Shown: piece after piece, positions 2,078 to 37,525 of the stretch
Numbering within the stretch: position 1 is the stretch's first letter
How the letters are laid out: every line of letters starts with the position of its first letter
IMG/VR virus record: IMGVR_UViG_3300022204_000010
Coordinates: 1-37,525 of that record
Direction: 5' to 3' (one strand)
Origin: a virus
DNA length: 37,525 nt
Position numbers and translations under genes: made by a program
The notes under the pieces: model-generated
Told to the model about the DNA's origin: nothing
The model's database searches: none
Seen by the model: the letters and a program-made list of their open reading frames with translations, nothing else

Positions 2078-2235
2078 TGGAACAGGGAAGAAAAACAACA
2101 ACGGTAAAAGCGGACATTAATTTACTTGATGAAGCAGCTTTAAAAATAGCAAAACTTGACGATATAATTCCGAACCGGAATGAAACTGTAAAAATTGCCC
2201 TGGAATTCTTTGCAAAAAATTACAAAGGGAAATGA
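2077..2235 (+). CDS. Small ribbon-helix-helix-like DNA-binding protein
   Basis: A 52-residue ORF, MEQGRKTTTVKADINLLD..., ending ...TVKIALEFFAKNYKGK. The alternating polar/hydrophobic start (KTTTVKADI) followed by two amphipathic helices, with the second beginning after an NRNET turn, fits the MetJ/Arc ribbon-helix-helix fold. ATG 2077 lies about 8 nt after a sigma70 -10 box and has no Shine-Dalgarno sequence. The stop is 1 nt before the BRO gene start, so the two are co-translated. It is a likely transcriptional regulator, perhaps acting on the TGTCTCATTA element that overlaps its own start. A short antitoxin-type protein is an alternative, though no toxin gene is adjacent. Confidence 0.6.
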   Translation: MEQGRKTTTVKADINLLDEAALKIAKLDDIIPNRNETVKIALEFFAKNYKGK

Positions 2236-2236
2236 A

Positions 2237-3094
2237 ATGGATATTCAAAATTTCTTTTTTGAAGATTGTGAGATTAGGACTTTTGAGAAAGACGGCAATA
2301 TTTGGTTCGTCGCAAAAGACATTTGTAATGCTCTTGGGATATTGAATTCAAGCGATGCTATTTCAGAAATTAATATCAAAAGAAAGGTTTATGTAAATAT
2401 TTATGATTCAATGAATCGTGTCCAGAAAACCGCATGTATAAATGAAGGCGGAATGTGGTCACTTGTATTCAAAAGCCGAAAAGAAAACGCCGAAAAATTT
2501 CAATTTTGGGTTACGGATGATGTTATTCCGTCAATCCGGAAAACGGGATCTTATTCACTGGCAAACAGAAGCCCGCTGGTTATAATTTCTGAAGCCCTGA
2601 TCCTTGCGAATGAAGCACTTCAGGAACAGACAATTCAGATTGCAGAACAAAACCAGTATATTGAAAAACTTGAACCGAAAGCGGAATTATATGACAGGAT
2701 TTTCAATTCAACAAAAGAAGGGATTCTAATTGAGACAGCTTTGAAGGCACTTGGTTATATTCCATATATTGATTCGGATGGGTTTTTTGATCTATTAAGA
2801 AAAGATAAAGTTTTAAGAAGTGAAAAAAATCGAAAATATGAACCGATCACGGAATACTTGCAGAAAGGTTATTTTGTATTCACAGCAGTACCAGAATTCA
2901 GTGACTATCATTCCGGAACTTCAAGATTAACTGGAAGGGGAATGCTCTGGGTAGAGATACAATACTCATATATAAAAGGATGGGAAATGCGGGAGTCATG
3001 GATAAAAGAAGAAAAAAAGCAAATGAAAATAGAAGAAAAACGAAAGAAAGAAAGTCAGCTTTTACTTTTTAATGAAATGAAAAGCCCGGCTTGA
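2237..3094 (+). CDS. BRO-N domain phage antirepressor
   Basis: A 285-residue protein. The start was chosen at ATG 2237, just after AAAGGGAAATGA, because upstream in-frame codons overlap the RHH gene. Residues about 5-105 form a BRO-N domain (IRTFEKDGNIWFVAKDICNA; later WVTDDVIPSIRKTGSY, the usual domain end). A coiled segment follows (about 125-150). The C-terminal half resembles the winged-helix KilAC/ANT region of phage antirepressors. These proteins bind DNA or repressors to switch phage states. Its position, directly after a small DNA-binding protein and before recombination genes, fits early regulation. It could suggest a temperate lifestyle, but no integrase is present in the window. 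Confidence 0.8.
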   Translation: MDIQNFFFEDCEIRTFEKDGNIWFVAKDICNALGILNSSDAISEINIKRKVYVNIYDSMNRVQKTACINEGGMWSLVFKSRKENAEKFQFWVTDDVIPSIRKTGSYSLANRSPLVIISEALILANEALQEQTIQIAEQNQYIEKLEPKAELYDRIFNSTKEGILIETALKALGYIPYIDSDGFFDLLRKDKVLRSEKNRKYEPITEYLQKGYFVFTAVPEFSDYHSGTSRLTGRGMLWVEIQYSYIKGWEMRESWIKEEKKQMKIEEKRKKESQLLLFNEMKSPA

Positions 3095-6748: not shown

Positions 6749-7329
6749 GTAGAGAATCAGAAAAACCGATTCTTTTTAATACAGAAATGGTAAAAGCGAT
6801 TTTGTCAGGCCAGAAAAAGCAGACAAGACGGATCATAAAACCGCAGCCGATTGAACTGAAAATGAATGATGAAAAAAGTATTATTTCTTTTTTGTCGGAC
6901 AGTCATCTTCTTTTTGGTTCCGTTTTATGGGTTCGGGAAAACTGGAATATTCACAACGGAAAATATTATTATCAGGCAGATAATCCTGAAGGCTTTTATA
7001 AATGGAGGCCTTCAATTCACATGCCCTATGATGCTTGTCGCCTGAAACTGAAAATCAATGATATAAAAATTGAAAGGATAAATGCAATTTCTGATTTTGA
7101 TATATCAAAAGAAGGGGTAAAAGGAGAAAGGGAATATTTTAAATTTCTATGGGATAGTATTTATGCGAAAGCAAAACCAATTGTCAAAAAGGGAACTGTT
7201 TCCCATTATGAAAGTTTTCCTTTTGACAATGAAAGCAAAATAATTTGTAGTGAATCAGTTAATGCTGATTTGATTGATGTTTACGTGAACCCTTATGTTT
7301 ATGTAATACACTTTGAACCGATTGAATAA
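6745..7329 (+). CDS. ASCH/PUA-like phage protein
   Basis: A 194-residue protein. It begins KPILFNTEMVKAILSGQKKQTRRIIKPQP and later has LFGSVLWVRENWN. This pair of motifs (F....V.AIL.G.K.QTRR, G..LWVRE.W) marks a common phage family with an ASCH/PUA-like beta barrel, thought to bind nucleic acid. Its role in phages is unknown; RNA or modified-DNA binding is a possibility. The start overlaps the preceding stop (ATGA). Confidence 0.65.
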   Translation: MSRESEKPILFNTEMVKAILSGQKKQTRRIIKPQPIELKMNDEKSIISFLSDSHLLFGSVLWVRENWNIHNGKYYYQADNPEGFYKWRPSIHMPYDACRLKLKINDIKIERINAISDFDISKEGVKGEREYFKFLWDSIYAKAKPIVKKGTVSHYESFPFDNESKIICSESVNADLIDVYVNPYVYVIHFEPIE

Positions 7330-7340
7330 AAGGAAATTAA

Positions 7341-8009
7341 ATGGAAATGGAAGGGAATGCAGTCTTCAGGTTCGATTATGAAGATGCCGTTAATTATGGA
7401 ACAGATGAAGCAATATTTTTATATAATCTGAAATTCTGGTTAAAAAACAATAAAGGGAAAGGGAAGAATTTCCGTGATGGAAAAACTTGGACTTACAGCA
7501 GCCTTGATAATTATACAGAAATTTTTGGATTCTGGAAAAGAAGTAAAATTTACAGAATAATAAATTCACTGGTAAAGCAGGGAGCTATTATCAAAGGGAA
7601 TTACAACAAATACAAATATGATAAAACAAGTTGGTATTCCATTTCTGATTATTACATAAAACCAGGTCAAAAATCCGAAAATAGGCCTGTTCCGGAAGTG
7701 AAACAGCCTATTCCGGAAATGAAAAAGCCTGTTCTGTTTCCGGAAAATCAGATATTCCAAAAACGGAATGTCAGACGTTCCACAACCGAAACACCTATAC
7801 CAGATATAAATAAAGATAAAAAAAGAAGATATAAAAAGAATATCATCCAACTGTCAGCCTACCGGCCTAAAGGGGAACAGGAAGAAACTGAAAACAGAAT
7901 CCATTCACTGAAAAATCATCCTCTTTTTCCGGAGCCAAAAACAGGAGAATTTAAAATGTCAGATGAAGAATTTGAAATGACATTAAGGGAAGTCGGATTA
8001 TGGGAATAA
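7341..8009 (+). CDS. Winged-helix replication initiator-like protein
   Basis: A 222-residue protein with ribosome site AAAGGAAATTAA before ATG 7341. Residues about 15-105 form a winged helix typical of phage replication organisers: helix (TDEAIFLYNLKFWLKNN), GKTWTYSS, IFGFWKRSKIYRIINSLVKQGAI, then wing ending DKTSWYSISDYY. A Pro-rich linker follows with a repeated 7-residue unit (RPVPEVK, QPIPEMK, KPVLFPE). A basic stretch (DKDKKRRYKKN-like) precedes a C-terminal acidic helix. The linker-coding DNA carries repeats and an AT-rich run that could be the origin, as in lambda O. It likely recruits host replication proteins. No helicase or polymerase gene is in the window. Confidence 0.6.
   Translation: MEMEGNAVFRFDYEDAVNYGTDEAIFLYNLKFWLKNNKGKGKNFRDGKTWTYSSLDNYTEIFGFWKRSKIYRIINSLVKQGAIIKGNYNKYKYDKTSWYSISDYYIKPGQKSENRPVPEVKQPIPEMKKPVLFPENQIFQKRNVRRSTTETPIPDINKDKKRRYKKNIIQLSAYRPKGEQEETENRIHSLKNHPLFPEPKTGEFKMSDEEFEMTLREVGLWE
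7686..7850 (+). other. Candidate replication origin inside initiator gene
   Basis: Two 21-nt direct repeats (7686-7706, 7707-7727) and a partial third (7728-7745) each carry the palindrome TTCCGGAA (7690-7697, 7711-7718, 7738-7745). They are followed by ATTCC-N6-GGAAT-type symmetry (7754-7769) and a purine- and AT-rich run (about 7797-7850). Iterons next to an AT-rich unwinding region within the initiator gene is the lambda O arrangement. The caveat is that the repeats also encode a repeated peptide and TTCCGGAA is common in this genome. Confidence 0.35.
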
Positions 8010-8272
8010 ATCAGGAAGAAACTGAATCAAAAATACCGTGGGAAGACCGCCATGATGGAGGCTATTCAGGAAACGGAAAAATATATTCAAACATTACTGA
8101 AGCTGAAGACTACTGGATTAATCACTGTGAAAGGTTTTATAAAGAAACGGGAAATTTGCCCCGCAGCTGGAAAGAACTTCCAGAATACATTAAAACAGAC
8201 AGGATTAAAAACTATTATTTGGATCTTGCAAAACGGAAAAAGAATGATGAACAGGCCAGCACTAAAATATAA
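8000..8272 (+). CDS. Small hypothetical early protein
   Basis: A 90-residue polar protein (MGINQEETESKIPWEDRHDG...) with an aromatic/charged central helix (EAEDYWINHCERFYKETG). It overlaps the end of the initiator gene by 10 nt and the start of the methylase gene by 29 nt, consistent with the packed early operon. No family recognised. It may be an accessory to the upstream initiator, in the position of lambda P, but it is far too short to be a helicase loader. Confidence 0.5.
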   Translation: MGINQEETESKIPWEDRHDGGYSGNGKIYSNITEAEDYWINHCERFYKETGNLPRSWKELPEYIKTDRIKNYYLDLAKRKKNDEQASTKI

Positions 8273-9110
8273 TGGCGGTAAATTCAGATTAAGGAATTGG
8301 ATAATTTCCAATTTTCCCGATCATAGAAATTATGTTGAAACCTGTTTTGGAGCCGGATCTGTTCTGCTTTCAAAAAAAAGGTCAGGCCTTGAAGTTGCAA
8401 ATGATATTGATGGAAACGTGAATAATTTCTTTACTGTTTTACGTGATAATCCGAAAGAATTAATCAGGATGATTTCTTTCACTGAATATTCTGAAGAATC
8501 ACTTTCTCATTCACTGGAAAATATTTTCAAGGAAGAAGATCCAATTAAAAAAGCATATTATTTCTATGTTATATCATGGCTTAGTTTACGGGCAAATGAT
8601 ATTAGAAAATCCAATTTGAATTTCAGGGTAAAAGGGAACATTGACGGAACAGGCGGACATAACCCAGCAAGACTTTTTTCAGAAACAAAACACCTGAAGA
8701 TGATTTCAGACAGGCTTAAAGGTGTTATTTTCACTAAAAAAGATGCTATTGAAGTTATAAATGAATTCGATAATAAAAATACTTTGTTTTATGTGGATCT
8801 TCCCTATCTGTTTGAATCAAGAGGCAGGGACAGGCTTTATACTGAAGAATTTGGGGAAATTGAAGAACATTCTAAAATTTTAGAACGATTGACTGAAATA
8901 TCCGGAATGGCAGTTGTTTCACATTATAAACATGATCTTTATGATTCTATGTTATCAGGCTGGGAAACCGTTTCCCAGAAAACAAATTCAAATTCATTCC
9001 AGAAAGGACATGGCAAAAAGGAAAAAGCACGGATTGAATATTTATATATAAACCAATCAGCGACGAACAGAATTCAACCAACTTTATTTCAGGAGAAAAT
9101 GACAATATGA
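8244..9110 (+). CDS. D12-class adenine-N6 DNA methyltransferase with DLPY motif
   Basis: 288 residues when started at ATG 8244 (an adjacent ATG at 8247 is equally usable; GGAAAAAG lies upstream). LKYNGGKFRLRNWI (7-20) and CFGAGSVL (34-41) are the AdoMet-binding motifs X and I of Dam-type D12 enzymes. The catalytic motif IV, normally DPPY, reads VDLPY (Asp185-Tyr188, codons 8796-8807) in the usual FYVD..YLF setting. A Pro-to-Leu change there is unusual and could weaken or alter activity. The rest (LSLRANDIRKSNLNFRVKG, GHGKKEKARIEYLYIN) fits the family. The target is probably an adenine site; specificity cannot be read. It protects phage DNA or marks it for replication. Confidence 0.8.
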   Translation: MMNRPALKYNGGKFRLRNWIISNFPDHRNYVETCFGAGSVLLSKKRSGLEVANDIDGNVNNFFTVLRDNPKELIRMISFTEYSEESLSHSLENIFKEEDPIKKAYYFYVISWLSLRANDIRKSNLNFRVKGNIDGTGGHNPARLFSETKHLKMISDRLKGVIFTKKDAIEVINEFDNKNTLFYVDLPYLFESRGRDRLYTEEFGEIEEHSKILERLTEISGMAVVSHYKHDLYDSMLSGWETVSQKTNSNSFQKGHGKKEKARIEYLYINQSATNRIQPTLFQEKMTI

Positions 9111-9319
9111 AAGTTTGCGAAAAAAATCAAAAATGTGTATCACTATGGAAACATAGCGGAAGGGTTTCATGTAGCCAGAAAATATTCCTTGAATGCAGTC
9201 AAAGGGAATATGACAGTGTTGAGATTTCAAAATGTGACTCATACAGGCCGAAAAATCACACACCCAAAAAAAAGCCTAAAAACAAGCGGGAAGAATTTGA
9301 ATCAATTTTCTCAAAATGA
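9107..9319 (+). CDS. Small Cys-rich protein
   Basis: A 70-residue protein whose ATG overlaps the methylase stop (ATGA) and whose stop overlaps the next ATG. Six Cys residues (CEKNQKC, VSC, LEC, SKC) and several His/Lys suggest a metal-binding knuckle. The C-terminus is very basic (KNHTPKKKPKNKREE), consistent with nucleic acid binding. No family recognised. A second reading frame (9135-9329) is open here, but the 4-nt overlaps favour this one. Confidence 0.5.
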   Translation: MKVCEKNQKCVSLWKHSGRVSCSQKIFLECSQREYDSVEISKCDSYRPKNHTPKKKPKNKREEFESIFSK

Positions 9320-9699
9320 AAAAAAATGAAAGTATTAATGTTATCAGTCCGGACCGGGGAAAACATTCCGGCCTTCAAAAACAGGAAAAGGATTTTTCAA
9401 GGAAAGTCGAAGAAGCCATTTTTGGGAACAAAAAAGGAAGTAAAAGAAAGGGTAAAAAAGATAATTCAGCTTCTCGAAGTATCTTATTTATCGTCTTCAA
9501 AGTTTCAGGATATAGAAGAAGAGATATTGACGGAATGGTTTCAACAGTCCTTGATTGTCTTGTTCACTCCGGAATCTTATCGGATGACAACCTGGAAATT
9601 ATACCTGGAGAAATTTCAACTTTTGTTAGAGTCCCAAAAGGGGAAGAAGGATTTGATATAATTATTTCAAAAAGTGAGCCTGAAGATGAAAAAACCTGA
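9316..9699 (+). CDS. RusA-like Holliday junction resolvase
   Basis: A 127-residue protein. After a basic N-terminal third it reads SILFIVFKVSGYRRRDIDGM, then VLDCLVHSGILSDDNLEII. RusA-family enzymes have a strand, D.DN.....DAL....G...DD, with the acidic residues binding magnesium. Asp70, Asp72, Asp90 and Asp91 fit this spacing, although the usual Asn after the second Asp is Gly here. The length matches the family. It likely cleaves four-way junctions from phage recombination before packaging. The ATGA overlap with the preceding gene fixes the start. Confidence 0.65.
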   Translation: MKKNESINVISPDRGKHSGLQKQEKDFSRKVEEAIFGNKKGSKRKGKKDNSASRSILFIVFKVSGYRRRDIDGMVSTVLDCLVHSGILSDDNLEIIPGEISTFVRVPKGEEGFDIIISKSEPEDEKT

Positions 9700-10528
9700 T
9701 AAAATAATGAAAGTTAAAATTTCTTCTTTAAAATTTCACCCGAAAAACAGTGTTCTTTTTAAAAGGAGAACTGAAGAATTTATTGCCGATCTTGCAAAAG
9801 ACATTAATGAAAATGGAATGCTTGAGGCGGTAACGATCAATTCAAAAGGAATTATTTTATCAGGGGAAAACAGGGTTCGGGCTGCCATGCTTCTTCAATG
9901 GGAATTTGTACCGGCAAGGGTTAAAAATCCTGAAAATGAAATAGCATATTTAATCAGCAGGAACACGAGACGGCGACACCTTGTTTTTACAGACAGGGTT
10001 TTGATTTATAAAGATCAATACCCTTTTATTTTTACAGGTGAAAGAATAACCGAAAAACAATATTTAAAAATATCAGGTGAAACGGGCTTCCTACTCCCTA
10101 CAATAAAAAAGGATATTGTCAGAATCAGAAAAGGCGATTTCAAAGAAATTACCATTGAAAACCTGAAAGAAAAATGGATGGAAAAAAACATAAAAGGCCT
10201 GAAGCTGAATTTAATCGACAATGGGAATAATTTTATTCTAAGGATTGAATCAAGGAAATTGAATCTTGAATTCGGTCCAGATCAATTCAAGGAAGTAGTA
10301 AAAGAATCATACAGGGCAGCAGAATCAGATTATTTTTCAAGGAATAAAGTTGAACAGGGAACCAGAAATGATTTAATCCGTGAACATAGAATTTCAATTA
10401 AAATGACTCAATTCCAAATTGGTCAAAAAATAGGTTATTCACAAAGTTATATTGCAGAGCTTGAATCTGGAAGATGGGAAGTTTCCCAAAAACTTTATGA
10501 GCAAATATTAAATATAGGAAGTAAATAA
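9686..10528 (+). CDS. ParB-like N-terminal domain fused to XRE helix-turn-helix
   Basis: About 280 residues from ATG 9686; GTG 9674 and ATG 9707 are alternatives. The N-terminus (VKISSLKFHPKN...) and GIILSGENRVRAAMLLQ form a ParB/Srx-type nucleotide-binding fold with the GENR.RAA signature. A ParB-like helical region follows. The C-terminal 55 residues are an XRE-type helix-turn-helix (IREHRISIKMTQFQIGQKIG, then SQSYIAELESGRWEVS). It is likely a sequence-specific DNA-binding protein acting as transcription or replication regulator, a combination that could serve as the phage's late-gene switch. No ParA partner is in the window. Confidence 0.75.
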   Translation: MKKPDKIMKVKISSLKFHPKNSVLFKRRTEEFIADLAKDINENGMLEAVTINSKGIILSGENRVRAAMLLQWEFVPARVKNPENEIAYLISRNTRRRHLVFTDRVLIYKDQYPFIFTGERITEKQYLKISGETGFLLPTIKKDIVRIRKGDFKEITIENLKEKWMEKNIKGLKLNLIDNGNNFILRIESRKLNLEFGPDQFKEVVKESYRAAESDYFSRNKVEQGTRNDLIREHRISIKMTQFQIGQKIGYSQSYIAELESGRWEVSQKLYEQILNIGSK

Positions 10529-10529
10529 A

Positions 10530-11279
10530 ATGGCAGAAATAGTTTTCATCGACGTGGAAGCAACCGGACTTGATACAGAAAAATCAAGAATTATTGAAAT
10601 CGGATTCCTGAAATGCAGGATCTTGAATAATGGTTATGAATTTGAAGAAATAGATTCAATCAGTGTTCTTGTAAATCCAGGTTTCCAAATTGACGAAACA
10701 ATTCAGGAAATAACCGGAATCACAAATGAAGATTTAAATGAAGCCCCTGGATTTGAAGAAATTGCAGCTGATTTGTTTCTCTTTTTCAAATATACTTCTT
10801 ATATATCAGGACACAATATTTTAAGATTTGATATTCCAATTCTTTCTTCAGAATTTAACAGATCCGGATTTATTTTCCCGATTGATGGAATGAAATATGT
10901 CGATACATATTCAATTTTTGCCGGTAAAGAAAAACGGGATCTTTCAGCAGCTTTGAAGTTTTATCACGGAATTGAAAAAGAAACTTCCCATCGGGCTTTG
11001 TCTGATTCAAAGGATTCACAGCTTGTTTTTTCCGGCCAAATGACACAATATGATGAATTCGGTTCATTGGAAGATGCTGCCAAATTTTCTATGGATGGAA
11101 TGGTTGACTTTGCTGGAAAATTCAAATATTCGGAATCAGGTGAAATTATTTTTAACTTCTCAAAGCATATAGGGAAACCGGCAATATCTGAAATAGGAAT
11201 GCTTAAATGGATGATTGATTCTGAATTTCCTTCCGATACGAAAAAATGGTGTAAAAAGATAATTAACGGGGAAAATTGA
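10530..11279 (+). CDS. DnaQ-like DEDDh 3'-5' exonuclease
   Basis: A 249-residue protein. Exo I: FIDVEATGL with Asp8 and Glu10. Exo II: SGHNILRFDIPIL with Asp101. Exo III: HRALSDSKDS with His154 and Asp159, i.e. a complete DEDDh set. The first 170 residues are the standard exonuclease domain. The remaining 80 form an extra domain of unknown role with two aromatic segments. It likely trims 3' ends in proofreading, recombination or repair. It is the last gene of the early operon, and a possible late promoter lies inside its final 50 nt. Confidence 0.85.
   Translation: MAEIVFIDVEATGLDTEKSRIIEIGFLKCRILNNGYEFEEIDSISVLVNPGFQIDETIQEITGITNEDLNEAPGFEEIAADLFLFFKYTSYISGHNILRFDIPILSSEFNRSGFIFPIDGMKYVDTYSIFAGKEKRDLSAALKFYHGIEKETSHRALSDSKDSQLVFSGQMTQYDEFGSLEDAAKFSMDGMVDFAGKFKYSESGEIIFNFSKHIGKPAISEIGMLKWMIDSEFPSDTKKWCKKIINGEN
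11233..11257 (+). promoter_or_regulatory. Possible late promoter P9 within end of exonuclease gene
   Basis: CCGATA (11233-11238), 13-nt spacer, TAAAAA (11252-11257), predicted start near 11264, 31 nt before the terminase small subunit ATG. The spacing matches the other late promoters, and the -10 matches the one at 23910. It lies in coding sequence, so chance occurrence is more likely than for the intergenic copies. Confidence 0.35.
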
Positions 11280-11294
11280 TAATACTTAACAGCC

Positions 11295-11912
11295 ATGACT
11301 GATATAAAAATTCCGGCAAAAAAGAAAACAGCCAAAAGGAAAAAAGCCGGTGAAAAAAATTTAGACCCCGCTGTAAAATCAGCAATAAAAATTGATTATC
11401 TGAAAGGTATCCAAATAGAAAAGATTTCTAAAAAACATGGACTGCCAAAAAAGAGAATCGAAAATCTAATAATAAATAACAAATGGAAAAAGGAACTTGA
11501 AAAACTAATTTCACTTACTGAAGAAAAAACAATTGAACAGATTGCAGAAAATAAATCAATGATGCTTGCCCAGATGGATTCTCAGGCAGCCGAGATAATT
11601 GATAAAGTCATGACTCAGATCCGGAATGACAATTTGTGGAATCCGGTAACTTACATGGATAAAGAAGAAAATATGCGGATGGATATGAATTTTGACAAAA
11701 TGGAGAAGCTGGGGAAATTGTGGAATACTGCCTGGGCCAGACGGTTACGGGCAATCGGTGAACCGGATGTTATTAAAGATGCCCCTGATAAAGAAAAAGG
11801 CGGGGAAGTCGGAACAAGAAAAATACAGGTTTTAACAATGGTTGGGGTTACTCAGAAAGTTGTTGATGATTATATAAATGGCGAAAGCAAGAACGAAAAA
11901 ACAGTTAACTGA
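11295..11912 (+). CDS. Terminase small subunit
   Basis: A 205-residue protein directly upstream of terL and overlapping it by 35 nt. After a Lys-rich start it has a helix-turn-helix (AIKIDYLKGIQIEKISKKHG, then LPKKRIENLIINNKW), as expected for the DNA-binding domain of small terminases. A long central helix for oligomer formation (IAENKSMMLAQMDSQAAEI) and a flexible tail follow. It would recognise the packaging site and load the large subunit. No clear Shine-Dalgarno precedes ATG 11295. Assignment rests on position plus helix-turn-helix. Confidence 0.75.
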   Translation: MTDIKIPAKKKTAKRKKAGEKNLDPAVKSAIKIDYLKGIQIEKISKKHGLPKKRIENLIINNKWKKELEKLISLTEEKTIEQIAENKSMMLAQMDSQAAEIIDKVMTQIRNDNLWNPVTYMDKEENMRMDMNFDKMEKLGKLWNTAWARRLRAIGEPDVIKDAPDKEKGGEVGTRKIQVLTMVGVTQKVVDDYINGESKNEKTVN

Positions 11913-13329
11913 AAATGTAGAAATTGAAGTCTTGACGCAAAAAGACTATGAAGATGAATTTTCTCCTAAGCAGCTTGAAGCCCTTCAGAATGAATGGATG
12001 TCAGATTGCATTGATGAAATGTGTTATGACGGCGGGGCAAGATCCGGAAAAACATATTTAATTATAAAAGCGATTATTGGCCGTGCGATTCTTTCCCCCG
12101 GATCAAGACATTTAGTTGCCAGATATAGACTGAATCATTTAAGAATGACTGTCTGGAAGCAGACTTTGATTCCATGCTTGCGGGATTTTGGATTAATTGA
12201 AAATTATGATTACTGGATTAATGAATCAGATCATATAATTAAATTTAGGAATGAAGCTGAAATTTACGGGGCTGGCCTGGACGATTCGGACCGTGTTGAA
12301 AAAATTATGGGTTCTGAATTTAATACAATTTTCATTAATGAAGCTACCCAGATTTCCTATAAAACATTCCAGAAACTTGTTACAAGACTTTCCTTTATCC
12401 GTCCAGGAATGCACAACAAGCTAATTGTAGACTCTAATCCAAGAAACAGATTTCACTGGATTTATAAATATTTTGTTTTAAGACAGGACCCGGAGACAGG
12501 GGAACCACTCAGGGAATCCAGAATGAACAGAATGGTTCGGAGAAATTGGAGTCCCCTTGATAATCCGTTTCTTCCTGAAGAATATGTTCAAAGACTTTCT
12601 GAATTAACGGGAGTTGAAAGGCAAAGGCTATATGAAGGCCTATGGGTAGACGTGGAAGGGCTTGTTTATCCCATGTTTGAAGATATTATTGTTGAACCGT
12701 TTAAAATTCCGGACAAATGGCCTTCAGCTGGAACCGTGGATTTTGGTTATACGAATCCTTTCTTTTTCGGTTGGCTTTATTATGATGAATCAAATGAAAT
12801 TTGGTATTTAACGGATGAACTTTATGAAGTCGAAAAAACGGTCCGGCTTCATTGCGAAGAAATAAAAAGCAGGCGACCGCTTCCAACTGAATTTATTGTG
12901 TCGGATCATGATGCTGAAGATCGGGCAACAATGGCAGAAGCCGGAATTCAGACAATTTCAGCCGATAAAGATGTTTCAACCGGAATTCAGGCTTTGATGA
13001 AAATGATGACCGCTAAAAATGGCCTGAAAATAAGAGTCTTCAGAACTTGCGTAAAAACAATTGAAGAATTTTCAGTTTATTCATGGCAACCGGCAAAAGA
13101 CAACCAGAATGCAAAAGAAGTCCCTATCAAAAATATGGATCATGCTATGGATGCCTTGCGATATTTTGCAAACAAGGTAATTGGAAATAAAAAATCAATT
13201 ATAACAAGGGATAAAAACAATCTTGATGATTTAACGTCAAAAAAACCGGAAAACAAAAATGCAGCTGATATTCAGCGGGACAGACTTGAACGGATGGGAA
13301 TAAACCCAGACTTTTTCGTAAAAAGATGA
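11878..13329 (+). CDS. terL: Terminase large subunit
   Basis: A 483-residue protein. ATPase: Walker A GGARSGKT (52-59) and Walker B IFINEAT (151-157). Coupling region: DSNPRNRFHWIYKYF (185-199). RNase H-like nuclease: TVDFGYTNP with Asp288, VSDHDAED with Asp343 and Asp345, and MDHAMDALRY with Asp421 and Asp425. It is the motor and headful or site-specific nuclease for DNA packaging. Length and motif order are normal for terminases of the PBSX/Mu-like type. The start at ATG 11878 overlaps the small subunit; no other in-frame ATG precedes the ATPase domain until residue 41. Confidence 0.92.
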   Translation: MAKARTKKQLTENVEIEVLTQKDYEDEFSPKQLEALQNEWMSDCIDEMCYDGGARSGKTYLIIKAIIGRAILSPGSRHLVARYRLNHLRMTVWKQTLIPCLRDFGLIENYDYWINESDHIIKFRNEAEIYGAGLDDSDRVEKIMGSEFNTIFINEATQISYKTFQKLVTRLSFIRPGMHNKLIVDSNPRNRFHWIYKYFVLRQDPETGEPLRESRMNRMVRRNWSPLDNPFLPEEYVQRLSELTGVERQRLYEGLWVDVEGLVYPMFEDIIVEPFKIPDKWPSAGTVDFGYTNPFFFGWLYYDESNEIWYLTDELYEVEKTVRLHCEEIKSRRPLPTEFIVSDHDAEDRATMAEAGIQTISADKDVSTGIQALMKMMTAKNGLKIRVFRTCVKTIEEFSVYSWQPAKDNQNAKEVPIKNMDHAMDALRYFANKVIGNKKSIITRDKNNLDDLTSKKPENKNAADIQRDRLERMGINPDFFVKR

Positions 13330-17453: not shown

Positions 17454-19832
17454 ATGGAAAATACGGTTGAAATAAATTTTGATTACTCTGAAAACCTTTT
17501 GAATAAGATACACCTGGCAATGTCGAAAATTGATCCGGCTTGGCAGGAATACGCCATGAAAGGCGATATTGAAGGAACAGTCAAACTTTCAAAATTACTT
17601 TTGGCCGGTTTTAAATGGGTTTCAAAAAGCAATAATCTTGAATTCGATGATTCCCAGAAAAACACACTATCCGGCTTCATGAAACAACTTGGAGCCGGAA
17701 CAATTGCCGAATTTCTTAAATCTGGACCTGAAGAAGAAACTGAAGAAAAACCCGAAGAAGAAGATGTTCAAAAAGCGGAATTATCTGAAGCAATGAAGCA
17801 GGCCGGAAATTATAAAAAGAAGCATGTTCGGGTTCATGGATTTGATATTGCAATTGAAAATAAAAAAAATTCATTCAGATCCGGAATGGACAGGAACGGG
17901 AAAGAATGGAAAACGAAAATATATTTTGATTATGGGTATATAAAAAGGACTGAAGGGGCAGACGGGGACCATTTGGATGTTTTTATTGGAAACGATAAAA
18001 AATCAGAAATAATTTTCATTGTAAACCAGGTCGATCCAAAAACGCAAAAATTTGATGAACATAAAATAATGTTTTGCTTCCCAGATTCGGAATCAGCGAA
18101 AAAGGGATATTTGAAAAATTATGAAAGGGGCTGGAAAGGCCTGGGTTCCGTGATCCCTTTAACCCTGGACCAATTCAGGGAATGGATTGAAAAGGGCAGC
18201 CAGAAGCATGAACTGAAAAATGTAAAAATCAGTTTTATGAAATCGGATCTTGCAAAAGTGAAAAATGAAATGAATGAAAGCATGGAAATAACCAAAGCAT
18301 TCATTGAATCAGGAAAGAAAGATATAAAAGATATTGTAAAATCAACTTTGATTGAAATTCAGAAAGGCGGGAAACGGCGACAGGACGGCGAAACATGGAC
18401 CCAGCCTTCCGGAAGAAGAGTCAAAAAAACAGGCGGGAAAATTATTCCTGTTTCTGAAGGCCGGAAAAAAGCCGGATCTTCTGAAGGGAAACCGGAGAAA
18501 AAAGCAGAAAAGCCGGAATCTTCAGATAAAAAAAGCATTTATGACACGGTTCTTTCTCTTTTTAAAAAGGGAGAAATAAAAGGGGACACAAAGAAGCCCG
18601 AAAAAGCCGAAAAACAGCCCACGGAAGCCCAGGAGAAGCCCAGCAAGCAAACTGAAGGGAATGGAAAGGATACGGCCGAAAAAAGCCCTGAACAGGATTC
18701 TAAAGGCGTTCCTGAAGCAAAAGGGAAGGGAATTTCCGTCCCCGCGGACATTCCATTTAAAGAAATCAAGATTCAGGAACAGTACACGGATAAAAAGGAT
18801 TTTGACAAACAGCAAATCGAAACCCTGAAAAACAGAATTCTTGAAAATGGCTATGATCCGGCCTTTCCGATCATGGTTGACCAACAAAAAGGAGCCTGGA
18901 CGGTTGTTGCCGGTCATCATAGATATATTGCAGTTGCCCAGCTGATAACCGAAGGAAAACTTCCAGGAGATTTTAAAATCCCAGTAGTGACAAAGGAATT
19001 TGCAACAGACAATGATCGGATTGCTGCCCAGGTTGCCGAAAATCAAAGGCGGAACGTCCTTCCAACGGATGAATCAAAAGCCTATGGGAAAATGCTGAAA
19101 AATGGATGGGATGCAAAGCGGATTTCAAAAGAACTTGGAAAAACAACAGGGGAAGTAAATCGTCGCCTTGCCCTGAATAATCTTGAAAAGGATCTTTTTC
19201 AGTTGGTTTCCAGAAAAGACAAATCCCTTCCGCTGGGAGTAGCTGAAGCAATCGGAACGGCCGGAAAGGATGCAAATGGAAATCCGGATCATTCCCTTCA
19301 GCTGAAAGCCTTTAAATGGTATGCAGAGAATCGATCAAAATATCCTGGCCGTGGTCCTTCAGCGGTTCAATCATATATGAAAGATGTTCAGTCCGATGGA
19401 TTCGCAAATATGGATTTTGATTCAGTTGCAACAGACATTCAAAAAGAAGCAATGCGGACAATAGGTTCAACAGATCGGGCAATTGCAAATAAAAAAATGA
19501 TAGATGGAATGATCGATAATTTAATGAAATCGTATCAAAGGATTTTGGGAGAAAATATCAATTCCATTAATCCGGAAACTATAAAAGAACTGGCTGCTTC
19601 CCTTGCCGTTTCAGGCGGTAAAGCAGGGGCAAGCCCGGTCATGAGTAAACTGGATGCTGTAATTTACGATCTATCAAAAATCAAGGAATCAATCAGTCAA
19701 AAAATGGCAGAAATTGAGTCGGATTCTCAGACACCTATGATGTTCGGGCTTGCAAAGTCAACACTGTATCAGACAATTGGATTAATAGATAAATTCACTG
19801 AATTTAAAAATGAAATTGGAGTAACAAAATGA
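17454..19832 (+). CDS. Polyvalent protein: pyrophosphatase-like domain plus ParB domain
   Basis: A 792-residue protein. Residues about 121-250 form the inorganic-pyrophosphatase-like domain of phage polyvalent proteins (KKHVRVHGFDIAIEN, KTKIYFDYGYIKRTEGADGD, HLDVFIG). Residues 286-335 hold IVKSTL and a small basic beta module (KGGKRRQDGETWTQPSGRRV). A Pro/Lys/Glu linker (340-425) follows. A ParB domain covers about 430-560 (VVAGHHRYIAV, then QVAENQRRNVLP) with a helix-turn-helix (DAKRISKELGKTTGEVNRRL). A helical tail completes it. Polyvalent proteins are thought to be packaged and injected with DNA to counter host defences. Spacing to the upstream gene is 4 nt. Confidence 0.75.
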   Translation: MENTVEINFDYSENLLNKIHLAMSKIDPAWQEYAMKGDIEGTVKLSKLLLAGFKWVSKSNNLEFDDSQKNTLSGFMKQLGAGTIAEFLKSGPEEETEEKPEEEDVQKAELSEAMKQAGNYKKKHVRVHGFDIAIENKKNSFRSGMDRNGKEWKTKIYFDYGYIKRTEGADGDHLDVFIGNDKKSEIIFIVNQVDPKTQKFDEHKIMFCFPDSESAKKGYLKNYERGWKGLGSVIPLTLDQFREWIEKGSQKHELKNVKISFMKSDLAKVKNEMNESMEITKAFIESGKKDIKDIVKSTLIEIQKGGKRRQDGETWTQPSGRRVKKTGGKIIPVSEGRKKAGSSEGKPEKKAEKPESSDKKSIYDTVLSLFKKGEIKGDTKKPEKAEKQPTEAQEKPSKQTEGNGKDTAEKSPEQDSKGVPEAKGKGISVPADIPFKEIKIQEQYTDKKDFDKQQIETLKNRILENGYDPAFPIMVDQQKGAWTVVAGHHRYIAVAQLITEGKLPGDFKIPVVTKEFATDNDRIAAQVAENQRRNVLPTDESKAYGKMLKNGWDAKRISKELGKTTGEVNRRLALNNLEKDLFQLVSRKDKSLPLGVAEAIGTAGKDANGNPDHSLQLKAFKWYAENRSKYPGRGPSAVQSYMKDVQSDGFANMDFDSVATDIQKEAMRTIGSTDRAIANKKMIDGMIDNLMKSYQRILGENINSINPETIKELAASLAVSGGKAGASPVMSKLDAVIYDLSKIKESISQKMAEIESDSQTPMMFGLAKSTLYQTIGLIDKFTEFKNEIGVTK

Positions 19833-34030: not shown

Positions 34031-34052
34031 TCGACGACATGAATGTCGTCGA
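34031..34052 (+). repeat. 22-bp palindrome at predicted mRNA 5' end
   Basis: Arms TCGACGACAT and ATGTCGTCGA separated by GA give a 10-bp perfect inverted repeat. It begins within 2 nt of the predicted start site of P7. It could be a DNA operator or a 5' RNA hairpin protecting the transcript. Its GC-rich CG steps stand out from the AT-rich surroundings. No T-run follows, so it is not a terminator. Confidence 0.7.
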
Positions 34053-34071: not shown

Positions 34072-37000
34072 ATGAACCCATTTGATAGACTTTCTGAAGT
34101 CGTAAGAGAAAATAAAAAAAAGATTATCAGCAATATTGTAAAGTCAACTTTAAAGATTGAAGTCAGAAAAGCCGGTTCTGTAAAATACTACAAAAAAATA
34201 GCAACAGGGAACCCGAAAACACCCTGGAGATATTTCTACACGAAAGAAGAATTCAAAGCCTATCAGTCGGAAAAAAACAAGGATTCCAAAAAATCATTAT
34301 GGGACAGTGTTGCCGATTATTTCAAAAAAAGCCCGAAAGAAACAAAAGAAGTCCTGAAGAAAGACTATAAAGAAAACAATGTGAAATCTTCTTTCGGTGT
34401 GACTGAATCCATTTTTATGGAACATGCCCTGGAATATTTCAAAAATAAGATAAAATGGGATCTTAAATTTGGAGCCGAACCAAAAGATCCAACCGGAGGC
34501 GGTGGAACTGGAAAGCCAGCAGGAAAACCAACTGGAAAACCGCCAGCGGGAAAACCAAAACTAAACATGAAGTTAATGAAGTTTTTCTATGAAAAATATG
34601 GAAGGCCTTCCCTGGTTATTCCTGAAAGCAAGCCAGCTGAAGATAATTTTGAAACCATGCCGGAACCTGAAGACGGAATTTCCAAACTTAAAAACAAGCT
34701 GGAATCTACAAAAAATTCAAAAATAGAAATACTCGAAAATGACATTTATGAAAACACAATGAAACTTTCAGAACTGGATGAAAGTCACCCGAATTACAGT
34801 GAATTAATTCAGGCGATTGAAGAAGATTCAGCCGAACTTGAAAGACTTCAAAACGGGGAACCGGAAGACAATTTTGAAACCATGCCTGAAGAAGAACCTG
34901 AATATAAAATTCCTTCAGTAGAAACAATGGAAAAACAATTCATTCAGTTACACTTGGAGCAAACAGCAGACTGGCTTATTGGAAGGGGAGATCCTGAATC
35001 AATTTCACAGGCCGAAATGGTAAAGCAGGAATTAAATAATATTTCTTCAAATATTACACCTATGGATATTCAGCAATTGAGATCTTTTTATAAAAGAATC
35101 GGAGTCGATATTGCCATAACAGAAGATCCAGAAATGGAAGGGAGCGACCTGGAAACACAATTTAAAAACAGTGTGGCCGGAGAATATGGAAATGAAGCGG
35201 TAAACCTGATTAAAACAGTAAAAAATCCAGATACATACGCAAGAAATGAGAACATGCCTTCAGCGGTTATGGCAAAAGATTTCCTTGAAGGTAAACTTCA
35301 GGAATATCAAAACATGGTTGATATTGCAAAAAAGAAATCCATGAAGGGAAACCCTATGGCACAGGATATAGCAAATACAGTAAAACCATTAATCCCAAAA
35401 GTAAAAGAAAAACTCGAAAATTTCAACTGGGAAACTGACACAGTTGAATCACTTATAGAATTTTTCAAAAATGAATTAGGTGATGAAACAGCCTCTTTTG
35501 ATGATGCTGTAAAAATGAAAAACAAGGCCGCTAAAAAAAGAGAACAAAGGGATAAACTTGAAGCACTTGGAAAAAAGTTTGATGATGAAAGAAATGAAAA
35601 AATAAAAGAAGATCAGAATAATTTTGAAACCATGCCGGATTCAAACCCAGTAAAAGAAGCCGTCCAGGAAGCGAAGGAAGAAATCGAAAAAGAAAAGGAC
35701 GAAAAACAGAGATTGCTTGATAATGCCGTGAAACCTGGAACGAAAATGATTATGAAAGCAAGCATAATGACAACAGGATTCGGGAAGAAAGCAAGATCAG
35801 TACCAACGCCAGAAGAAGAAGTCATAATCACTGAAGCAATTATAAAAGGGAATACAAATGAATTGGTTTATAAATATAAATCTGAAAGCTCGGCCGGATT
35901 TGCCCCAGCTTCCTCTTTTAAAAATTTACCAGAAACCGATCCCGAAAAAATAGACGAATTGATAAATGAAGCAACGCCAGAAAACAGAAACGAAACAAAA
36001 AAGAAAATAGTAGGAACCGAACTTACTGAAGATGAAGCTGAATTTCTTGTTGAAAAGAATGCTGCCGAAATAGAATTTTTACCCGAAAAAAGGGATTTTG
36101 GAATGAATGAATCTGGTATCAAGTTTAAGGAACCAGTATTAGATTACACTGCTTTCCCAGACAATGAACTGATTTCATTTAAAGAAAAAAATGTTTTAAA
36201 TATTCCGTTCCCGTCTTATTTCCCGAAGATCGATTTAAGATACATTCAGGATCTAAACTATAAACTACATGCAGTTGAGCTTGAAAACGGCAAATTATTA
36301 ATCCAGACCGATGAAGAAAGAATCGGATCTGGACCGGAAGGACTGATAAAACGATATGCCCTTGTTTCTTCAGATATGCTATCTTCTATTGAAAATTATG
36401 CAGTAATGCGGGAACGTGCTTTATATAAACAGGATTATATGAAAGGTTTAAGAGAAGATAATCCTGAAGCGACAGAAAAAGAAATAGAATTGCTATATAA
36501 ATCATACAGGAAAAAGAGAATTGGACCGCGTAAAGCGAAAAATTCAATGTCCTATGATAATTTCAACCATATATCAAACCATATATACGGTAGATATGTT
36601 TCAAAAAATGAAATCGAGAAGTTTAAAAATGTTTTCAATGAATACCGTAAAGTAAGGGAATATTCAGAAACTTCAAAAAGAAATTTAAAATTCAATACTG
36701 ATGACAGGATTAATAATTCAACCTATGTAAAAGGAAGGGAAACTTCCTATGGTGACTCCGGAACAGTTGACGATCTTCTTGATACTCATGGATTTAAAGT
36801 TAAAATGCAGAATGGAGATCCGGTTTCACCTGAAGCACTTGAACAGGTCAAAACAGCAGCCGATTCTGTTTATGGAGTATTTGGCAGTTTAAAAGAAATG
36901 TCTAAAGATTTTGGAATGAAAGTTTCACATTCAGGAAGTATGAGAATGCACGCAAGTAAAGAAGTCGGACTGTTTTTCCCAGCAATGCAGTCCATCGGTG

Positions 37001-37383
37001 TTTCATTTCATGGCGGTGAAAAACGTGCTGGATTAACATTTGCACATGAAGTAGGCCATTTTATCGATTATACAATCGGGAAGAAGTATAATAAATATCA
37101 TGCTTCAGAATCAGTTGGAAGTCTTGAATATGAGATAGCTGAAACCTTCAAATCTGGAATGAAGGGAGACTGGAAGAAAAAAGATTATTGGACCAGATCA
37201 ACTGAATGCTTTGCCAGATCAATGGAATGTTACTGGTTGAAAAAAACAAACCAACGACATAAAGAAAGGGACGGGGCAAACCCAGACGAAAAATACTTTA
37301 ATGAAAAAGTTGTCCCGTTAATTGAACGGTTTTTTGAAGAAAAGAAAGATATTCTTAAATCAATACTTGGGAAGTTGAAATGA
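34072..37383 (+). CDS. Large protein with C-terminal zincin metalloprotease domain
   Basis: An 1103-residue protein. The N-terminus has IVKSTL and a beta module (KAGSVKYYKKIATGNPKTPW, then RYFYTKEEF) like that of the polyvalent protein at 17454. A GKP-rich linker (about 140-165) follows. The motif NFETMP occurs three times (about 192, 267, 517) between charged coiled-coil segments. The C-terminal 150 residues are a zincin: LTFAHEVGHFIDY with His992, Glu993, His996, and downstream TECFARSMECY with Glu1045 as third ligand, as seen in phage polyvalent-type metallopeptidases. It has its own late promoter. Likely a virion protein injected or acting during entry; assembly protease is an alternative. 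Confidence 0.7.
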   Translation: MNPFDRLSEVVRENKKKIISNIVKSTLKIEVRKAGSVKYYKKIATGNPKTPWRYFYTKEEFKAYQSEKNKDSKKSLWDSVADYFKKSPKETKEVLKKDYKENNVKSSFGVTESIFMEHALEYFKNKIKWDLKFGAEPKDPTGGGGTGKPAGKPTGKPPAGKPKLNMKLMKFFYEKYGRPSLVIPESKPAEDNFETMPEPEDGISKLKNKLESTKNSKIEILENDIYENTMKLSELDESHPNYSELIQAIEEDSAELERLQNGEPEDNFETMPEEEPEYKIPSVETMEKQFIQLHLEQTADWLIGRGDPESISQAEMVKQELNNISSNITPMDIQQLRSFYKRIGVDIAITEDPEMEGSDLETQFKNSVAGEYGNEAVNLIKTVKNPDTYARNENMPSAVMAKDFLEGKLQEYQNMVDIAKKKSMKGNPMAQDIANTVKPLIPKVKEKLENFNWETDTVESLIEFFKNELGDETASFDDAVKMKNKAAKKREQRDKLEALGKKFDDERNEKIKEDQNNFETMPDSNPVKEAVQEAKEEIEKEKDEKQRLLDNAVKPGTKMIMKASIMTTGFGKKARSVPTPEEEVIITEAIIKGNTNELVYKYKSESSAGFAPASSFKNLPETDPEKIDELINEATPENRNETKKKIVGTELTEDEAEFLVEKNAAEIEFLPEKRDFGMNESGIKFKEPVLDYTAFPDNELISFKEKNVLNIPFPSYFPKIDLRYIQDLNYKLHAVELENGKLLIQTDEERIGSGPEGLIKRYALVSSDMLSSIENYAVMRERALYKQDYMKGLREDNPEATEKEIELLYKSYRKKRIGPRKAKNSMSYDNFNHISNHIYGRYVSKNEIEKFKNVFNEYRKVREYSETSKRNLKFNTDDRINNSTYVKGRETSYGDSGTVDDLLDTHGFKVKMQNGDPVSPEALEQVKTAADSVYGVFGSLKEMSKDFGMKVSHSGSMRMHASKEVGLFFPAMQSIGVSFHGGEKRAGLTFAHEVGHFIDYTIGKKYNKYHASESVGSLEYEIAETFKSGMKGDWKKKDYWTRSTECFARSMECYWLKKTNQRHKERDGANPDEKYFNEKVVPLIERFFEEKKDILKSILGKLK

Positions 37384-37416: not shown

Positions 37417-37441
37417 CCGATAATTTGAAATTTGCTATCAT
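37417..37441 (+). promoter_or_regulatory. Late promoter P8 (CCGATA class), leaderless
   Basis: CCGATA (37417-37422), 13-nt spacer, TATCAT (37436-37441), 6 nt, then ATG 37448. Another ATG at 37444 is in a different frame, but spacing points to 37448. Confidence 0.65.
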
Positions 37442-37447
37442 GTATGA

Positions 37448-37525
37448 ATGAACAAGATAGCAAATTTCATTTTTCAATTTTTATGGTTTTTTGTAGTTTC
37501 CCCTTTTCACAAGAAAAAGGTTGTT
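37448..37525 (+). CDS. Start of a gene with a hydrophobic N-terminus, runs off the window
   Basis: Twenty-six codons remain open to the window end: MNKIANFIFQFLWFFVV followed by SPFHKKK. The hydrophobic stretch after a single Lys could be a signal peptide or membrane anchor. The ATG falls 7 nt after the -10 box of P8, matching the leaderless geometry. Function cannot be read. Confidence 0.5.
   Translation, partial: MNKIANFIFQFLWFFVVSPFHKKKVV

What the first reader, a model, noticed from the sequence alone, without database searches (positions are those of the whole stretch)
34072..37383. Giant late protein with HEVGH...E zincin and three NFETMP repeats
The C-terminal domain carries HEVGH (992-996) and a downstream TECFAR with Glu1045, a complete gluzincin-like ligand set. 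Three exact NFETMP hexamers in acidic context lie between coiled-coil blocks. Such a repeated linear motif in a protease-bearing protein could be self-cleavage sites or docking points. It has its own late promoter, so dosage or timing differs from the tail operon.
Basis: partly seen in the sequence, partly recalled or inferred. Interest (0 to 1): 0.62.

Follow-up and report, generated by a model that had tools for sequence, protein, structure and literature searches.

The report
Giant phage protein with recurring tag
This phage gene encodes a large multi-part protein, probably carried inside the virus particle, that ends in a zinc-protease domain. The six-letter tag repeated in its flexible linkers (NFETMP) also occurs, almost letter for letter, in many other giant phage proteins, and no paper in the searched library reports it.

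Summary
In detail: ORF 34072-37383 encodes 1103 aa with HEVGH at 992-996, Glu1045, and NFETMP at 192, 267 and 517. The "own late promoter" is not supported. HExxH, Asp999 and the ECFAR motif are invariant in about 20 relatives, from Leptospira phages to other spirochaete and Bacteroidales elements. The modelled C-terminal domain matches the M34 zincins (lethal factor and Pro-Pro endopeptidases, Z about 13 and 10). The relatives fuse it to InPase, NUDIX, RelA/SpoT, ART, ParB and methylase domains. It is therefore a polyvalent-type phage protein, a known kind.

The surprise is NFETMP. No close zincin relative has it, but (D/N)NF(E/D)TMP(E/D) recurs in dozens of giant phage proteins of several unlinked groups (DarB-like, MuF-ART-like, DdrB-ParB). 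These are mostly encoded beside portal and capsid genes, and many carry the motif 2-5 times in flexible linkers. Permuted and reversed controls give 1 and 0 stretches against 47. Synonymous codons vary, so the peptide is what is conserved. No paper in the library prints NFETMP.

Self-cleavage by this zincin is not supported as such. A shared recognition tag fits best: docking is favoured over cleavage, but this is unproven.

The parts
34072..37383 (+). Polyvalent-type giant protein gene, 1103 aa
   Evidence: Open frame; relatives in Leptospira phages and 20 other loci
34159..34476 (+). N-terminal module (residues 30-135): hairpin-like KYYKKIATGNPKTPWRYFY plus helical domain, shared with LE1 gp26, L032, L036, L114 and 32 viral loci
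34183..34239 (+). Hairpin-like element KYYKKIATGNPKTPWRYFY (38-56), which co-occurs with NF[ED]TMP in other giant proteins
34645..34662 (+). NFETMP copy 1 (192-197, context AEDNFETMPEPED)
   Evidence: low-confidence linker in model
34870..34887 (+). NFETMP copy 2 (267-272, context PEDNFETMPEEEP)
35620..35637 (+). NFETMP copy 3 (517-522, context DQNNFETMPDSNP)
35905..36711 (+). Conserved domain upstream of the zincin (residues 612-880), kept with it in the relatives
   Evidence: P714, P718, Y776 invariant; modelled confidently
36754..37365 (+). C-terminal zincin domain, M34-like (residues 895-1098)
   Evidence: AlphaFold2 model and structural matches to lethal factor catalytic domain and PPEP-1/2/3
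37045..37059 (+). HEVGH (992-996), two zinc His and general-base Glu; Asp999 follows
   Evidence: H992, E993, H996, D999 invariant
37186..37188 (+). Tyr1039, nearly invariant, six residues before the third ligand (candidate transition-state Tyr)
   Evidence: role inferred
37204..37218 (+). ECFAR (1045-1049), third zinc ligand Glu1045
   Evidence: E1045 C1046 F1047 A1048 R1049 invariant
17454..19832 (+). Second polyvalent-type protein of the same phage: InPase + ParB_N, no NFETMP

Best explanation
The gene encodes a polyvalent-type phage protein: an N-terminal module, long helical and flexible stretches, a conserved middle domain and a C-terminal M34-like zinc peptidase. It is probably packaged in the virion and injected. 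The three NFETMP copies are instances of a short linear motif, roughly [DN]NF[ED]TMP[ED], that is under peptide-level selection and shared by many giant phage proteins encoded in head-assembly clusters. The most likely role is a recognition tag in flexible linkers, read in trans by a partner common to these phages. I favour docking, meaning loading or tethering of cargo proteins in the head; cutting is the main rival. Shown: zincin ligands, fold, domain fusions, motif recurrence, linker position, genomic context of the other motif proteins. Inferred: protease activity, packaging, and what reads the motif.
For: Zincin: H992, E993, H996, D999 and ECFAR are invariant in 20-21 aligned sequences. 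The model has pLDDT 83.5, and its zincin part aligns with lethal factor (Z 12.9) and PPEP-1/2/3 (Z about 10). Profile match to LPD1-type zincins is 97.4%. Polyvalent: relatives fuse this domain to InPase, NUDIX, RelA_SpoT, ART-PolyVal, ParB_N, methylase and 2H domains, which is the repertoire of Iyer et al. 2017 (PMC5512222). Motif: 47 viral stretches with 65 in-frame DNFETMP sites against 1 for the permuted DNFTEMP and 0 for the reversed peptide. The reversed DNA pattern was found in 0 of 30 motif records. 40 distinct codings occur in 88 contexts, and 14 of 23 multi-copy ORFs mix codings. The motif stays intact while the linker diverges (L058/L059: 6 of 32 flanking residues identical against 56% overall). 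Flanks are less hydrophobic than random positions (p = 5e-14). Most motif ORFs lie on the same strand close to portal, MuF, prohead-protease or MCP genes. Several phages carry it in two different giant proteins. Docking: 12-aa tandem doublets, and P1 DarA/Hdf are needed to pack the other Dar proteins in the head (PMC12810830).
Against: No partner was identified. The motif is absent from the window's sister InPase-ParB protein and from close zincin relatives, so it is not needed for the zincin's basic role. The contig ends 142 bp after the gene, so its head module cannot be seen. Packaging was not tested. Many motif contigs are related, so their counts are not independent. About half of the motif records examined also encode an HExxH protein, so a cleavage role is not excluded.
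Confidence: 0.5

Rival explanations
1. NFETMP is a polyprotein-style cleavage site. A phage protease (a polyvalent zincin in cis or trans, or the prohead protease) cuts giant proteins at these linkers into working pieces, before packaging or after injection.
For: A strict 7-residue motif in inter-domain linkers and in several proteins of one phage looks like a polyprotein cut site. Iyer et al. predict zincin processing of polyvalent proteins. Several motif ORFs carry a zincin themselves (L079, L083, L086, L090, L154) and others have one in the same record. 11 of 20 records (window included) encode a related prohead protease.
Against: Most motif ORFs have no HExxH. The G002/G005/G009/G013 contigs show no convincing zincin. 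Most zincin relatives lack the motif. The motif is not in capsid, scaffold or other genes, as a prohead-protease site would lead one to expect. Sites 12 aa apart are redundant for cutting.
Confidence: 0.3
2. NFETMP binds a conserved host protein after injection, tethering the injected protein to a host machine such as the replisome, polymerase or a chaperone-protease.
For: Strict peptide-level conservation in otherwise unrelated effector proteins, including DarB-like and MuF-ART-like ones.
Against: The motif was not found in frame in 393 Spirochaetota genomes (the single hit was not in an open frame). Its restriction to head-cluster proteins points to a phage partner.
Confidence: 0.12
3. NFETMP is only a spread linker cassette: it travels with the N-terminal module by recombination and has no function of its own. 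The zincin alone matters, as an effector or processing protease.
For: The three window copies share identical codons over 17 nt. The motif co-occurs with an N-terminal hairpin-like element.
Against: 40 synonymous codings, mixed codings within single proteins, and loss of flank similarity around an intact motif show selection on the peptide. Most proteins with the N-terminal domain lack the motif.
Confidence: 0.08

Closest known systems
Leptospira phage LinZ_10 protein AGS80813 (684 aa; also in Lin_34 and LbrZ_5399) and phrog_22901
   Same: Conserved middle domain and zincin, about 37% identical over 490 aa; in LinZ_10 the gene follows homologues of the window's tail genes. A 684-aa viral protein, S5VLA8, is the only strong structural match in BFVD (E 1.4e-38)
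   Different: Shorter; different N-terminus; no NFETMP; unnamed
Polyvalent proteins of phages and conjugative elements with zincin MPTase (Iyer et al. 2017), LPD1-type zincins
   Same: Large multidomain phage protein, zincin hub domain with Asp three residues after HExxH, domain partners InPase/ART/RelA/NUDIX/ParB in relatives
   Different: LPD1 model only 17.7 bits, below its cut-off of 27; that paper does not print an NFETMP motif
M34 peptidases: lethal factor catalytic domain and Pro-Pro endopeptidases PPEP-1/2/3
   Same: Zincin fold, HExxH plus Glu about 50 residues on, Z about 13 and 10
   Different: 13-15% identity; secreted bacterial enzymes; substrate here unknown
Leptospira phage LE1 gp26 (ParB N-terminal domain protein)
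   Same: Shares the N-terminal module (37-135 of the window protein)
   Different: Carries ParB instead of a zincin; no NFETMP
P1 Dar proteins (DarA, DarB, DdrB, Hdf)
   Same: Packaged and injected giant proteins. DarB-like, ddrB-ParB and MuF-ART-like relatives carry the NFETMP motif in other phages
   Different: No NF[ED]TMP was found in the stretch read of Bordetella phage PHB04, around its DarB-like methylase

Membership tests
Zincin metallopeptidase (HExxH + Glu) | HExxH helix and third ligand Glu on a following helix | tested here: met
   Invariant H992, E993, H996, E1045 in 20-21 aligned sequences; HEVGH in helix 983-1005 and E1045 in helix 1043-1058
Zincin metallopeptidase (HExxH + Glu) | Zinc binding and peptidase activity | not testable with these tools
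   Needs protein
M34 (lethal factor / PPEP) fold | Structural match over the catalytic domain standing clear of unrelated folds | tested here: met
   All of the top 50 rows are LF, PPEP or related toxin structures, Z 12.9 down to 8.0. Foldseek E-values are weak (best 8.9e-3), so this is fold likeness, not close kinship
Pfam LPD1 (PF18796) | Score above the curated cut-off of 27 bits | tested here: not met
   17.7 bits and 20.8 bits. Distant kinship by profile comparison, 97.4%
Polyvalent protein (Iyer et al. 2017) | Large multidomain protein of a phage or conjugative element combining unrelated domains, zincin being the commonest | tested here: met
   Multidomain anatomy; relatives fuse the same zincin to InPase, NUDIX, ART, RelA, ParB; sister InPase-ParB gene
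Polyvalent protein (Iyer et al. 2017) | Packaged in the virion and delivered at infection | not testable with these tools
   Needs virion proteomics
NFETMP-bearing giant phage proteins (group defined here) | [DN]NF[ED]TMP in a flexible linker of a large phage protein | tested here: met
   Three copies in linkers
NFETMP-bearing giant phage proteins (group defined here) | Gene beside portal/MuF/prohead protease/MCP genes | tested here: inconclusive
   Most other motif ORFs do. The window contig ends 142 bp after this gene; in LinZ_10 the relative sits between tail genes and a likely head module

The most novel reading that the evidence does not exclude
[DN]NF[ED]TMP is an unreported, widely shared address tag of phage cargo proteins. 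Unrelated giant proteins acquire it in their linkers so that one conserved head component can load, hold or cut them, making it a general sorting or processing code for proteins that phages inject with their DNA.
Probability: 0.42. Interest if true: 0.82.

Novelty: new variant of a known kind. Interest (0 to 1): 0.62.

Why it matters
How phages choose which giant proteins to pack and inject is largely open; for P1 the order is known but no address tag is. A near-invariant seven-residue motif in unrelated injected-type proteins gives a directly testable handle: a peptide bait, a deletable tag, and a search key for uncharacterised cargo proteins. The M34-like zincin also adds a clade to the known polyvalent peptidases.

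Tried and rejected
Own promoter: no sigma-70-like site in the gap before the gene. Chance repeat: rejected by shuffles and by recurrence elsewhere. DNA-level repeat (for example a recombination site): rejected for the motif at large because 40 codings occur; the window's own copies do share codons. Cleavage by the prohead protease shared with capsid proteins: strict or near motif absent from the other genes among the 431 scanned. One-to-one link of motif and zincin: rejected. One-to-one link of motif and N-terminal module: rejected; of 32 module loci, 5 have the motif in the module's own ORF. Spirochaete-host factor: the only match in 393 Spirochaetota genomes is not in an open frame. tblastn of concatenated motifs against phage and plasmid records found nothing useful; such short queries are weak. 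Several DNFDTMP hits (the L076/L084/L088/L089 family, L078, L082, L085) and the short L030/L063 proteins are not in acidic linkers and are probably unrelated. Direct relative searches with the whole protein found nothing; the conserved C-terminus was needed.

Full report
Observation. The ORF 34072-37383 (+) is open and codes for 1103 residues. HEVGH is at 992-996, Glu1045 opens ECFAR, and NFETMP is at 192, 267 and 517. The first 17 nt of the three copies are identical, AATTTTGAAACCATGCC. A hexamer repeated even twice occurs in only 122 of 2000 shuffles. The claimed own promoter is not supported: no sigma-70-like site lies in the 63-bp gap, and the region has no excess of such sites. The whole record is a 37.5-kb virus contig, so the gene sits 142 bp from its end.

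What the C-terminus is. The whole protein finds no relatives by direct scans, but tblastn finds Leptospira phages LinZ_10, Lin_34 and LbrZ_5399, at 37% over 490 residues in the first two. Other window genes (tail sheath, baseplate and others) also match LinZ_10, so the window phage is related to Leptospira phages. An alignment of the conserved end finds 17 viral contigs and 3 genome contigs (two from spirochaetes, one from Bacteroidales). In 20-21 aligned sequences H992, E993, H996, D999 and E1045-R1049 are invariant, and Y1039 nearly so. The model of residues 612-1103 has mean pLDDT 83.5. Its zincin part (895-1098) aligns with the anthrax lethal factor catalytic domain (Z 12.9) and with Pro-Pro endopeptidases PPEP-1/2/3 (Z about 10). 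Foldseek E-values are only 9e-3 and up, so this is fold likeness and not close kinship. A profile comparison with LPD1-type zincins gives 97.4%, although the Pfam LPD1 cut-off is missed (17.7 against 27 bits).

What kind of protein. The same zincin in relatives is joined to InPase, NUDIX, RelA/SpoT, ART-PolyVal, ParB, methylase and 2H domains. That is the repertoire of 'polyvalent proteins' (Iyer et al. 2017, PMC5512222), where zincins are the commonest domain and are predicted to process the polypeptides. A second gene in the window, 17454-19832, has InPase and ParB domains. Residues 37-135 match LE1 gp26, a ParB protein, and 32 viral loci carry this N-terminal domain, nearly all in giant ORFs. 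The window protein is therefore a modular polyvalent-type protein. Packaging and injection are inferred from this kinship and were not tested.

The repeated motif. None of the zincin relatives has NFETMP, so I searched for it elsewhere. The pattern for DNFETMP hits 47 stretches of viral contigs, 65 in-frame sites in 48 ORFs of up to 2923 residues. A same-degeneracy permutation, DNFTEMP, hits one stretch, and the reversed peptide hits none. DNFDTMP hits 17, about half of them in the same linker context. NNFETMP followed by an acidic residue hits 15, about half on contigs already found. Shuffled ORFs give no exact match and 0.24 with two mismatches. The consensus is S-[AE]-[DN]-N-F-[ED]-T-M-P-[ED]-x-E. 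The 88 contexts use 40 codings (both E and D forms counted), and 14 of 23 multi-copy ORFs mix codings, so selection acts on the peptide. Flanks are poor in hydrophobic residues (0.195 against 0.260, p = 5e-14). In the window protein all three copies fall in low-confidence linkers between helical blocks. In L058 and L059 the motif is identical while only 6 of 32 aligned flanking residues match (56% identity overall), and other homologous pairs show motif gain and loss.

Where motif proteins occur. Those with recognisable parts are DarB-like methylase-helicases (L111), MuF-ART-like proteins (L107), a ddrB-ParB protein (L067) and an LPD25 protein (L031). In 19 other records most motif ORFs lie on the same strand within a few kb of portal, MuF, prohead-protease or capsid genes. 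Phages G002, G005, G009, G013, G027 and the L154 contig each carry the motif in two different giant proteins. The motif is not in other gene products of these contigs. Many contigs are related, so counts overstate independence: single-linkage clustering of the ORFs gives five groups, one of which (L030/L063) is probably unrelated.

An associated N-terminal element. Many motif proteins begin with a hairpin-like stretch K-Y-x-[KR]-[KR]-x-P-(x)n-G-x-Y-x-[YF]-Y. In 20 records 13 of 14 genes with it were motif genes. That pattern was drawn from motif genes, so the count is partly circular. In the later NNFETMP set, which was not used to define it, 5 of 6 new contigs have it as well, though several of these are close relatives.

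Mechanism. Three readings are open: docking tag, cleavage site, host-binding peptide. Against simple self-cleavage: most zincin relatives lack the motif, most motif ORFs lack HExxH, and doublets 12 residues apart are pointless as cuts but natural for multivalent binding. For cleavage: a strict linker motif resembles polyprotein sites, and about half of the motif records encode an HExxH protein. In P1, DarA and Hdf line the inner capsid and the other Dar proteins depend on them for packaging (PMC12810830), which makes a cargo-docking tag plausible. I favour docking at about 0.5 and cleavage at about 0.3.

Novelty. The protein is a new variant of a known kind. No paper in the searched library prints NFETMP. 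That covers open-licence full text only, so it is not proof that the motif is unreported.

Noticed in passing
window 34183-34239; L097, L098, L099, L100, L101, L114, L150, L152, L153, L155, L157: Hairpin-like N-terminal element KYxKRxPKxxGxxYxYFY recurs in NF[ED]TMP giant proteins, often in two proteins of one phage; it may be a second shared signal.
   Followed up: partly
window 17454-19832: Second polyvalent-type protein (InPase + ParB_N) in the same phage, without NFETMP.
   Followed up: partly
window 37427-37468: Inverted repeat GAAATTTGCTATC...GATAGCAAATTTC followed by T-rich sequence just after the gene, read by eye; possible terminator with a 16-base loop.
   Followed up: no
window 34031-34052: Perfect hairpin TCGACGACATTCATGTCGTCGA (as read on the minus strand) in the gap before the gene; T-rich tail only on the minus strand.
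   Followed up: no
L009, residues 1210-1613 of ORF 7073-12160: InPase domain of a zincin polyvalent protein appears interrupted by an intein with LAGLIDADG endonuclease.
   Followed up: no
L027 ORF 9038-14323: 1761-aa relative with zincin, ParB and a 2H phosphoesterase domain with weak similarity to the anti-CBASS protein Acb1.
   Followed up: no
L154: Motif and zincin (HEWGHFMD) in one 1695-aa ORF, and a second motif ORF (1459 aa) with a 12-aa NNFETMP/NNFDTMP doublet.
   Followed up: partly
L118-L149 (loci): The N-terminal domain is nearly always followed by a basic linker and a short conserved helix (N-R-S-L-M-R-K-V-W-x-I-Y or L-S-V-M-x-x-I-x-x-L-Y).
   Followed up: no
window 2195-3094, 8052-9110: Bro-N/KilAC antirepressor and D12 adenine methylase genes, suggesting a temperate or defence-evading phage.
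   Followed up: no
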